Source: Pectobacterium araliae
GTDB taxonomy: Bacteria; Pseudomonadota; Gammaproteobacteria; Enterobacterales; Enterobacteriaceae
DNA: 64,000 nucleotides
Reading direction: 5' to 3'
Assembly: GCF_037076465.1 (NCBI RefSeq)
Contig: NZ_AP028908.1
Coordinates: forward strand, 744,001-808,000
Position numbers and translations under genes: made by a program. The notes under the pieces are model-generated. The model had not been told where the DNA came from and did no database searches. It was given only the letters and a program-made list of their open reading frames with translations. Of this stretch, positions 36,688-37,504 are shown piece by piece; the stretch's first letter is position 1; each line of letters opens with the position of its first letter.

Positions 36688-36720
36688 AAACAAAAATGGC
36701 CGCCGGATGGCAGCCATTTT
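36688..36720 (-). terminator. Intrinsic terminator of the azuC-like transcript
   Basis: On the minus strand AAAATGGC-T-GCC-ATCC-GGC-G-GCCATTTT folds into an 11-bp stem with one mismatch, followed by TTTTTGTTTG. It ends the small transcript from 36979. Confidence 0.8.
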
Positions 36721-36743
36721 GGGGGTTAACGTACCGAGTACGA

Positions 36744-36830
36744 TTAACGGAAGATAGCGTGGGGGTTAACACCGCGATAGGTTTTGCCCAACGCTTTTAA
36801 TATTTGATTGATTTTGCGGACAACGCGCAT
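36744..36830 (-). CDS. azuC: AzuC-like small protein (28 residues)
   Basis: This tiny gene was found by reading the minus strand. ATG 36830 is preceded by GGGGA with seven-base spacing. The 28-residue product starts MRVVRKINQILKALGK and ends TYRGVNPHAIFR. It has the same length as E. coli AzuC, and its tail matches AzuC's KTFKDVPPGNMFR (recalled sequence). The N-terminal part should be an amphipathic basic helix. E. coli AzuC is a membrane-associated peptide from the dual-function AzuCR RNA that affects GlpD. A terminator follows directly, and a CRP-flanked promoter precedes the gene pair. Confidence 0.65.
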   Translation of the reverse strand: MRVVRKINQILKALGKTYRGVNPHAIFR

Positions 36831-36857
36831 TTTTTTATCCCCACGATTCTTAAATAA

Positions 36858-36929
36858 TTATTGGTTAAAAGTACCAAAGTTGATGTTGATGTTTTCAAAC
36901 ATAGCGATGATTTTGTTCAGCAGTTTCAT
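36858..36929 (-). CDS. Second AzuC-like small protein (23 residues)
   Basis: This lies immediately upstream of the 28-residue gene on the same strand, 27 bases apart. ATG 36929 has GAGG eight bases upstream; ATG 36935 is too close. The product starts MKLLNKIIAMFEN and ends FGTFNQ. The spacing MKL..KI..MF.N fits the N-terminal half of E. coli AzuC (MKLRKILKSMFNN), so it may be a diverged tandem copy. It is predicted as an amphipathic helix. Confidence 0.6.
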   Translation of the reverse strand: MKLLNKIIAMFENININFGTFNQ

Positions 36930-36963
36930 GGTCATTTCCTCATTGTTAGTTAATTTGTTTTTC

Positions 36964-36979
36964 TGTGATGCTGTTCACG
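36964..36979. promoter_or_regulatory. CRP-like site overlapping the azuC-like transcription start
   Basis: TGTGATGCTGTTCACG fits TGTGA-N6-TCACA with one mismatch at the end. It overlaps the predicted start of the minus-strand transcript, a position suited to repression. Confidence 0.5.
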
Positions 36980-36985
36980 TTTTTA

Positions 36986-37014
36986 AGAGTACTCGCACTG
37001 ATACAGGTGGTCAA
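36986..37014 (-). promoter_or_regulatory. Promoter of the azuC-like transcript
   Basis: On the minus strand TTGACC (37014-37009) and TACTCT (36991-36986) are separated by exactly 17 bp. Transcription would start near 36979 and run to the terminator at 36688, about 290 nt. Confidence 0.7.
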
Positions 37015-37020
37015 CTTTTT

Positions 37021-37036
37021 TGTGATGGAAATCACA
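37021..37036. promoter_or_regulatory. Consensus CRP site upstream of the azuC-like promoter
   Basis: TGTGATGGAAATCACA is a perfect TGTGA-N6-TCACA palindrome flanked by T and A runs, about 50 bp upstream of the predicted start. A second CRP-like site lies at the start itself. Confidence 0.75.
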
Positions 37037-37504
37037 AAAAAATGAACGATCAGTTTGTGAGAAGTAAACCGTGGTTTTGATTTTCGTCTAAGAACCCTTT
37101 CTGCTTTTTCTTCATACTGGCGCGTTTTCAGCGAGTTGCCTGGTTGCACAGTATTTGTACCGATTGCAGATTTCCTTAGCGGAAAGATGGAATAGAGATA
37201 GGTAAATTGTCTCGATTAGCAGTTGAAATAAGCGCGGAGGAAGCGGGATAATCGTGCGCTTCACATTACCTGACACTGTTTATCCGGTGATGTTTTACTT
37301 CCGCTTGTTTTTATACCGCTCGTTTTGATCGAGCAACATTTTCCGGTTCTGCATCCAGCGAGTTAATCGTTTGCGTGCGGGGTTATAGGGTTCATGGCGC
37401 GTTATGTTCATTGTTAATTAGTGTGCTGATGCGTTCGCGGGCAAGGCTGCGAGAACCGTTCAGAATTGATCGTAAATAATAATGGCATTTCAGGGGATAC
37501 CACT
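37037..37504. promoter_or_regulatory. Upstream region of the adenine permease
   Basis: About 470 bp without a gene. Its recognised element is a PurR-like site at 37361-37376; the rest shows no structure I can name. Confidence 0.4.
37361..37376. promoter_or_regulatory. PurR-like operator
   Basis: AGTTAATCGTTTGCGT is the reverse complement of ACGCAAACGATTAACT. It matches the PurR box ACGCAAACGTTTTCGT well in its first half. Purine permeases of this family are PurR-controlled in E. coli. Confidence 0.5.

What the first reader, a model, noticed from the sequence alone, without database searches (positions are those of the whole stretch)
36688..37036. Tandem AzuC-like micropeptide genes with CRP sites, promoter and terminator
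On the minus strand between lpxP and the adenine permease lies a complete small transcription unit. It has a CRP consensus palindrome, a TTGACC-17-TACTCT promoter, a second CRP-like site on the start point, two ORFs of 23 and 28 codons each with a ribosome site, and an intrinsic terminator. The 28-mer shares length and tail pattern with E. coli AzuC, encoded by the CRP-repressed dual-function RNA AzuCR. The duplicated arrangement seems undescribed, and genes this short are normally missed.
Basis: partly seen in the sequence, partly recalled or inferred. Interest (0 to 1): 0.75.

Follow-up and report, generated by a model that had tools for sequence, protein, structure and literature searches.

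The report
CRP-blocked RNA encoding two tiny proteins
A short stretch between two ordinary genes of a plant-associated bacterium appears to make a sugar-responsive RNA that carries two tiny, unannotated protein genes, and the same switch-plus-tiny-protein design recurs in many related bacteria.

Summary
The unit is real. On the minus strand (37036-36693) two CRP palindromes 57 bp apart flank a promoter, followed by 23- and 28-codon ORFs and a terminator. 23 of 23 same-genus genomes searched carry it.

The reading needs changing. ORF1 belongs to its own peptide family (MKLxNKIIAxF...), mostly stand-alone elsewhere; ORF2 is the AzuC-like one. The closest described RNA is Yersinia sRNA Ysr206 (RF02852): a full-length but sub-threshold match (35 bits; cut-off 124). 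Published work saw Ysr206 only in a crp mutant and found cooperative CRP binding. ORF1 lies inside it.

The double-CRP spacing is diagnostic: 36 of 39 named Enterobacterales loci show a micro-ORF just downstream, against 1 of 41 elsewhere. This genome has a second such locus, beside treB.

ORF2 shows no synonymous change among 22 distinct same-genus sequences; lpxP has 0.39 per synonymous site in 12 of them. ORF2's ribosome site covaries with its own codons (1 of 20,000 permutations as good; 7 of 23 rows go the other way). I infer a CRP-repressed, probably dual-function RNA with structure-gated ORF2. Expression and translation are untested in this organism.

The parts
37021..37036 (-). CRP site 1, perfect TGTGA-N6-TCACA palindrome, centre about 48.5 bp upstream of the inferred start point
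   Evidence: only one in the window; same place relative to the -35 box in the related loci
37009..37014 (-). -35 hexamer TTGACC
   Evidence: TTGA at 7-8 bases from site 1 in nearly all related Enterobacterales loci; not called by the generic promoter scan
36986..36991 (-). -10 hexamer TACTCT (weak)
   Evidence: position kept in the related loci; not called by the scan
36965..36978 (-). CRP site 2, GTGAACAGCATCAC, just downstream of the inferred start point (36980)
   Evidence: the Ysr206 model begins at window 36980
36936..36941 (-). ribosome site of ORF1 (GAGGAA)
36858..36929 (-). ORF1, MKLLNKIIAMFENININFGTFNQ, Ysr206-type micropeptide
   Evidence: pN/pS 0.32 across genera, 0 of 300 column shuffles as low; profile hits in 37 of 149 family genomes, 21 strong
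36839..36845 (-). 5' arm (CGUGGGG) holding the ribosome site of ORF2
   Evidence: predicted fold; arm-swap test
36744..36830 (-). ORF2, MRVVRKINQILKALGKTYRGVNPHAIFR, AzuC-like amphipathic micropeptide
   Evidence: pN/pS 0.43, 6 of 300 column shuffles as low; no synonymous change in 22 distinct same-genus sequences; helical moment 0.82, 0 of 5000 shuffles
36774..36794 (-). inner hairpin inside ORF2, stem around loop CAAAA
   Evidence: predicted fold; near-invariant nucleotides across genera
36758..36764 (-). 3' arm (CCCCACG, codons 23-25 of ORF2) pairing with the ribosome-site arm
36693..36720 (-). intrinsic-terminator-like stem
   Evidence: kept in the same-genus alignment

Best explanation
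The locus makes one RNA of about 290 nt from a promoter held between two CRP sites, one just upstream of the -35 box and one on the start point. When cAMP is high, CRP on these sites blocks RNA polymerase, so the RNA is made on glucose or other preferred sugars. ORF1 is translated into a 23-residue peptide. The ribosome site of ORF2, an AzuC-like cationic amphipathic helix, is paired with codons 23-25 of ORF2 itself, so ORF2 is read only when that pairing is opened, perhaps by ribosomes finishing ORF1 close upstream. The nearly frozen nucleotide sequence of ORF2 suggests that the same stretch also acts as RNA, as I recall for AzuCR. Shown here: sites, spacing, conservation, covariation. Published for the Yersinia relative: repression and direct binding by CRP. 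Inferred: translation, gating, coupling, base pairing, and peptide targets (a membrane-surface enzyme such as GlpD).
For: Double-CRP arrangement unique in the window and coupled to micro-ORFs in 36 of 39 named Enterobacterales loci against 1 of 41 others. Full-length sub-threshold Ysr206 match, E 1.2e-7 in a 431-base search; Ysr206 was detected only in the crp mutant and bound CRP cooperatively (passages of PMC4376681). Coding signal for ORF1 (0 of 300) and ORF2 (6 of 300). Zero synonymous change in ORF2 against pS 0.39 in lpxP. Arm-swap covariation, 1 of 20,000 permutations as good. Beside the adenine permease gene in 23 of 23 tandem loci tested. GlpD present, 76% identical to E. coli.
Against: No expression or translation data for this organism. 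The Ysr206 match is far below the family cut-off (35.2 against 124 bits). The generic scan sees no promoter. The swap test ignores relatedness; 7 of 23 rows pair no better with their own arm than with the median foreign arm, and pairing is weak or elsewhere in L137, L067 and L041. The ORF2 coding signal is modest. ORF1 is also low in synonymous change (0.035-0.047), so the constraint is not confined to ORF2. A CRP site at this distance upstream could also be read as activating.
Confidence: 0.62

Rival explanations
1. It is a CRP-repressed base-pairing sRNA of the Ysr206 kind, and one or both ORFs are not translated in a way that matters.
For: Ysr206 is described as an sRNA. ORF2 is frozen at the nucleotide level and structured, and its coding signal is modest (6 of 300).
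Against: ORF1 keeps frame and amino acids across genera (0 of 300; profile hits in 37 of 149 genomes), under this promoter at several genomic places. No in-frame stop in any of the 10-11 representatives of either ORF, stops in most of them in other frames. L040 has lost one codon of ORF2 in frame.
Confidence: 0.2
2. CRP activates the unit, making it a cAMP-induced micropeptide message rather than a glucose-expressed one.
For: A perfect CRP palindrome lies upstream of a weak promoter.
Against: Site 2 lies on the start point, and the related Ysr206 was seen only without crp. AzuCR and VcdRP, of similar kind, are reported as CRP-repressed, VcdRP through a site upstream of -35 (passages of PMC8672173).
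Confidence: 0.1
3. It is a type I toxin-antitoxin-like unit making small membrane-active peptides.
For: Very short peptides, one strongly amphipathic, and a structure over a ribosome site.
Against: No antisense promoter-like site was found by the scan (a weak test). No long hydrophobic segment by eye. Single-copy, kept in 23 of 23 same-genus genomes at one place, with a sugar-status control region.
Confidence: 0.05

Closest known systems
Ysr206, Yersinia sRNA (Rfam RF02852)
   Same: RNA begins at CRP site 2; double-CRP promoter; 23-codon ORF1 inside; published as seen only in a crp mutant and bound cooperatively by CRP
   Different: Below the Rfam cut-off (35 against 124 bits). The Yersinia RNA has no ORF2, and its locus lies elsewhere. 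'Small protein' does not occur in the main text of the describing paper.
AzuCR / AzuC, E. coli
   Same: 28-residue basic amphipathic peptide with a similar tail; CRP site 1 at the same distance from TTGA; a CRP-repressed dual-function RNA (passages of PMC8672173)
   Different: CRP site 2 lies in the -35/-10 spacer; different locus; one ORF; no arm covariation; NCBI AzuC model does not recognise ORF2
VcdRP / VcdP, Vibrio cholerae
   Same: CRP-repressed RNA of about 300 nt with a 29-residue peptide and an RNA part (passages of PMC8672173)
   Different: Its sequence was not compared here; its CRP site lies upstream of -35 only, as described
Spot 42 / SpfP, E. coli
   Same: RNA with a 15-residue protein; repressed by CRP
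   Different: Different sequence; by eye no double palindrome upstream of the K-12 gene

Membership tests
AzuC (NCBIfam NF033642) | Match to the curated model | tested here: not met
   No hit for ORF2 or ORF1 up to E 10, while E. coli AzuC scores 75.9 bits
AzuC (NCBIfam NF033642) | Sequence kinship | tested here: inconclusive
   Pairwise: 0 of 5000 shuffles reach the Pectobacterium ORF2 score; Serratia 15, Edaphovirga 784. Profile: 1 of 4000 for Pectobacterium, 159 for Serratia, 406 for Edaphovirga; ORF1 scores 6.3 bits against 6.6 for ORF2
AzuC (NCBIfam NF033642) | azuC locus (between yecJ and yecR) and CRP site 2 in the promoter spacer | tested here: not met
AzuC (NCBIfam NF033642) | Binds and stimulates GlpD | not testable with these tools
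   Only the presence of GlpD was shown
Ysr206 (RF02852) | Score at or above the gathering cut-off | tested here: not met
   35.2 against 124 bits, though over the whole model with E 1.2e-7
Ysr206 (RF02852) | Transcript starting at a CRP site, with a second CRP site upstream | tested here: met
   By sequence only; the start point was not mapped here
Ysr206 (RF02852) | Repressed by CRP | not testable with these tools
   Published for Yersinia
dual-function RNA | Acts both as message and by base pairing | tested here: inconclusive
   Coding signal plus nucleotide-level constraint in ORF2; no target search was run

The most novel reading that the evidence does not exclude
A fixed double-CRP promoter marks a largely unannotated class of glucose-expressed micropeptide RNAs spread over many Enterobacterales, including the 'non-coding' Ysr206. 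In Pectobacterium, Dickeya, Serratia and their kin, an AzuC-like second ORF is joined to the ORF1 message, with its ribosome site gated by pairing with its own codons, so that one RNA is a message for two peptides and a structured regulator at once.
Probability: 0.5. Interest if true: 0.75.

Novelty: new variant of a known kind. Interest (0 to 1): 0.62.

Why it matters
The few CRP-linked micropeptides that I know of (AzuC, SpfP, VcdP) were found one at a time. A promoter signature that finds such genes at several places in one bacterial family gives a test bed: each member predicts a peptide made when cAMP is low. It predicts that a published sRNA, Ysr206, is translated. It also suggests a functional link between AzuC-like and Ysr206-type peptides, since two families that lie apart in some genera share one message in others.

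Tried and rejected
A duplication of AzuC was rejected as the simplest reading: ORF1 aligns with the stand-alone MKLxNKII family. Its pairwise score against E. coli AzuC is within reach of shuffles (169 of 5000), though against a composite AzuC only 8 of 5000 reach it, so distant kinship stays open. Counting covariation on alignment A1 was dropped because the ribosome-site arm was visibly misaligned; an alignment-free arm-swap test was used instead. The same pairing was looked for in azuC and not found (3862 of 5000 permutations as good). A leader-peptide role for a downstream gene was rejected because lpxP is convergent. A Citrobacter-type ORF1 query found nothing in the E. coli collection. 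NCBIfam gave nothing for ORF1, ORF2 or the treB-side peptide; Pfam gave only a weak sub-cut-off hit for ORF2 (E 0.18). The main text of PMC4710047 (Pectobacterium sRNAs) was searched for six terms with no relevant passage; supplements could not be opened. Six peptide strings were in no paper of the library. A search on Ysr206, RF02852 and small-protein terms was seen as a listing only; none of the six papers shown was opened for it.

Full report
What is there. On the minus strand, in order: TGTGATTTCCATCACA (37036-37021), TTGACC (37014-37009), 17 bases, TACTCT (36991-36986), GTGAACAGCATCAC (36978-36965), GAGGAA then ORF1 (36929-36858), a 27-base gap, ORF2 (36830-36744) and a terminator-like stem (36720-36693). 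The palindrome is the only perfect one in the window, and the whole arrangement occurs once and in 0 of 100 shuffles. The generic scan calls no promoter here and finds terminator-like stems about as often in shuffles.

Conservation. The 351-base locus was found in 23 of 23 other same-genus genomes and 0 of 16 from other families. In a family-wide sample, 29 of 149 genomes matched and 8, this one included, hold both ORFs. The adenine permease gene lies beside it in 23 of 23 tandem loci tested; lpxP was found in 12 of the 23 within the DNA held (some of the 23 are the same genome seen through two collections).

Constraint. Among 22 distinct same-genus sequences (24 loci, two identical ones dropped), ORF1 has pS 0.035 and pN 0.005; ORF2 has no synonymous difference and one amino-acid change in one sequence. 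lpxP could be read ungapped in 14 of 24 loci; one was dropped for poor alignment and one had no distinct ORF row. On the remaining 12, lpxP (last 290 codons) has pS 0.39, ORF1 0.047, ORF2 0. Windows of 28 lpxP codons have at least 11 synonymously variable codons; ORF2 has 0 of 28 and ORF1 2 of 23. Both ORFs are thus held at the nucleotide level, ORF2 most. Across genera, codons 12-20 of ORF2 are nearly invariant at third positions.

Coding. Across genera, ORF1 has pN/pS 0.32 (10 sequences; 0 of 300 column shuffles as low) and ORF2 0.43 (11 sequences; 6 of 300). Neither has a stop in frame; in the other two frames stops occur in 7 and 10 of 10 for ORF1 and in 11 and 9 of 11 for ORF2. ORF2 has lost one codon in frame in L040. 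Translation is well supported for ORF1 and moderately for ORF2.

Structure. In predicted folds, the ribosome-site arm of ORF2 pairs with ORF2 codons 23-25 around an inner hairpin with loop CAAAA. The arms change together: CGTGGGG with CCCCACG in Pectobacterium, GCGTAGG with CCTACGC in Serratia-type and Dickeya-type loci, GTGTGGG with CCCATAC in others. Over 14 distinct 3'-arm classes (from 23 distinct rows), own-arm pairing averages -17.4 kcal/mol against -14.4 (sd 0.7) for swapped arms; 1 of 20,000 permutations was as good. Against this: relatedness is not corrected for; in 7 of 23 rows (L039, L137, L239, L241, L243, L245, L246) the own arm is no better than the median foreign arm; L137 hardly pairs, and L067 and L041 pair differently. 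The same test on 18 distinct azuC loci is negative.

A promoter class. The pattern with loose gaps was found in 67 of 295 family genomes, with 0 in the reversed-pattern control columns; part of these hits have other spacings and are probably other promoters. With tight gaps, 4 of 247 order-level genomes matched, all in this family; the 229 from other families gave none. This genome has two, the window's and one beside treB. Of the 80, 36 of 39 Enterobacterales loci had a ribosome site and ATG micro-ORF 12-50 nt after site 2, against 1 of 41 others; several of the 39 are from the same genera. Two of the three misses (L156, L170) encode the usual 23-mer but failed my ribosome-site expression; the third (L163) has another spacing. 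Two of the 36 (L107, L139) are longer ORFs of another kind. The peptides fall in groups: MKLINKIIALF... 23-mers and 16-residue forms; the tandem group; a 32-mer beside treB (L031 2355-2453); 27-mers such as MKLMKKINKLMKELGDIYLEAAKVTKY; and longer ones in Chimaeribacter. Shorter ORF1-like genes often keep the start-point CRP site without a clear upstream one.

ORF1 and AzuC, apart and together. A profile of ORF1 hit 37 of 149 family genomes, 21 of them strongly (E at most 3.2e-10); the rest match 13-15 positions with E 3e-5 to 0.005. Eight of the 21 are the tandem genomes. Of the other 13, ten also hold an azuC-locus match longer than 100 bases; none of the 8 tandem genomes does. Such matches occur in 28 of 149 genomes, out of 45 with any match. 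I read the azuC ORF itself in 19 of the 20 loci fetched (L227 gave none), and 8 of the 28 were not fetched. So two peptide families that lie apart in some genera share one message here. That suggests, but does not prove, a linked function.

Link to published RNAs. Rfam's Ysr206 matches Yersinia locus L049 at 222 bits and the window at 35 bits over the whole model, E 1.2e-7 in a 431-base search, below the cut-off of 124. The whole-window search at the cut-off reported only a tRNA. Six of 13 further sources matched Ysr206 below cut-off (L035, L037, L038, L041, L044, L057); L039, L040, L062, L031, L034 (azuC), L268 and L271 did not. The Yersinia RNA begins at CRP site 2 and contains ORF1 but no ORF2. 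In passages of PMC4376681, Ysr206 was detected only in the crp mutant, and CRP bound its regulatory region in a cAMP-dependent, cooperative way, with more than one predicted site; 'small protein' does not occur in that main text. From passages of PMC8672173: AzuCR is repressed by CRP, AzuC up-regulates GlpD, and VcdRP is repressed by CRP bound upstream of -35. That the coding and pairing parts of AzuCR overlap is recalled.

AzuC kinship. ORF2 against E. coli AzuC scores 38, reached by 0 of 5000 shuffles; other ORF2 forms range from 0 to 784 of 5000. My AzuC profile gives ORF2 6.6 bits (1 of 4000 shuffles as good), but ORF1 also scores 6.3, and the Serratia and Edaphovirga forms are not set apart from shuffles (159 and 406 of 4000). 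NCBI's model recognises neither. I call ORF2 AzuC-like and probably related, not AzuC.

Mechanism. A CRP site on the start point, and one near -48.5, fit repression by CRP-cAMP, as published for the Yersinia relative. I infer that the RNA appears on glucose, that ORF1 is read freely, and that ORF2 is gated by its own structure and perhaps opened by ribosomes ending ORF1. ORF2 is strongly amphipathic (moment 0.82, 0 of 5000 shuffles; net charge +7), ORF1 less so (0.45, 343 of 5000; +1); AzuC has 0.60 (121 of 5000). A membrane-surface enzyme partner is a guess; GlpD, the precedent, is present.

Verdict.

Noticed in passing
G000 chromosome 2911253-2911453 (L031 2253-2453): Second double-CRP locus in this genome, between an acetyltransferase-like ORF and a PTS permease ORF that I read as treB, encoding MAMFSKITKFFKRMGDVYVSYCERIGSIISPF; the same peptide type recurs in other Pectobacterium, Samsonia, Dickeya and Serratia loci.
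   Followed up: partly
L025-L033: Inside the treB-side 32-mer gene an overlapping 22-codon frame (MSA.VNVLGQSSARSDCD.NNL) is open in each copy printed.
   Followed up: no
L268-L276: Stand-alone 16-17 residue ORF1-like genes (such as MKLINKIIAMFANYSN) with a CRP palindrome just after a -10-like box, often without a clear upstream CRP site.
   Followed up: partly
L064, L066, L146: A further group of 27-mers (such as MKLMKKINKLMKELGDIYLEAAKVTKY) under the double-CRP promoter with slightly different spacing.
   Followed up: no
L073-L075, L107, L139: Loci with the promoter but a longer ORF of 47-52 codons ending GQ[ND]FVGAGKRMY or similar; two carry Chimaeribacter titles.
   Followed up: no
L057 1786-1943, L062 1714-1871: The known sRNA STnc410 lies on the opposite strand just downstream of stand-alone ORF1 loci.
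   Followed up: no
window 37295-37411, minus strand: A 38-codon basic ORF (MNITRHEPYNPARKRLTRWMQNRKMLLDQNERYKNKRK) upstream of the unit.
   Followed up: no
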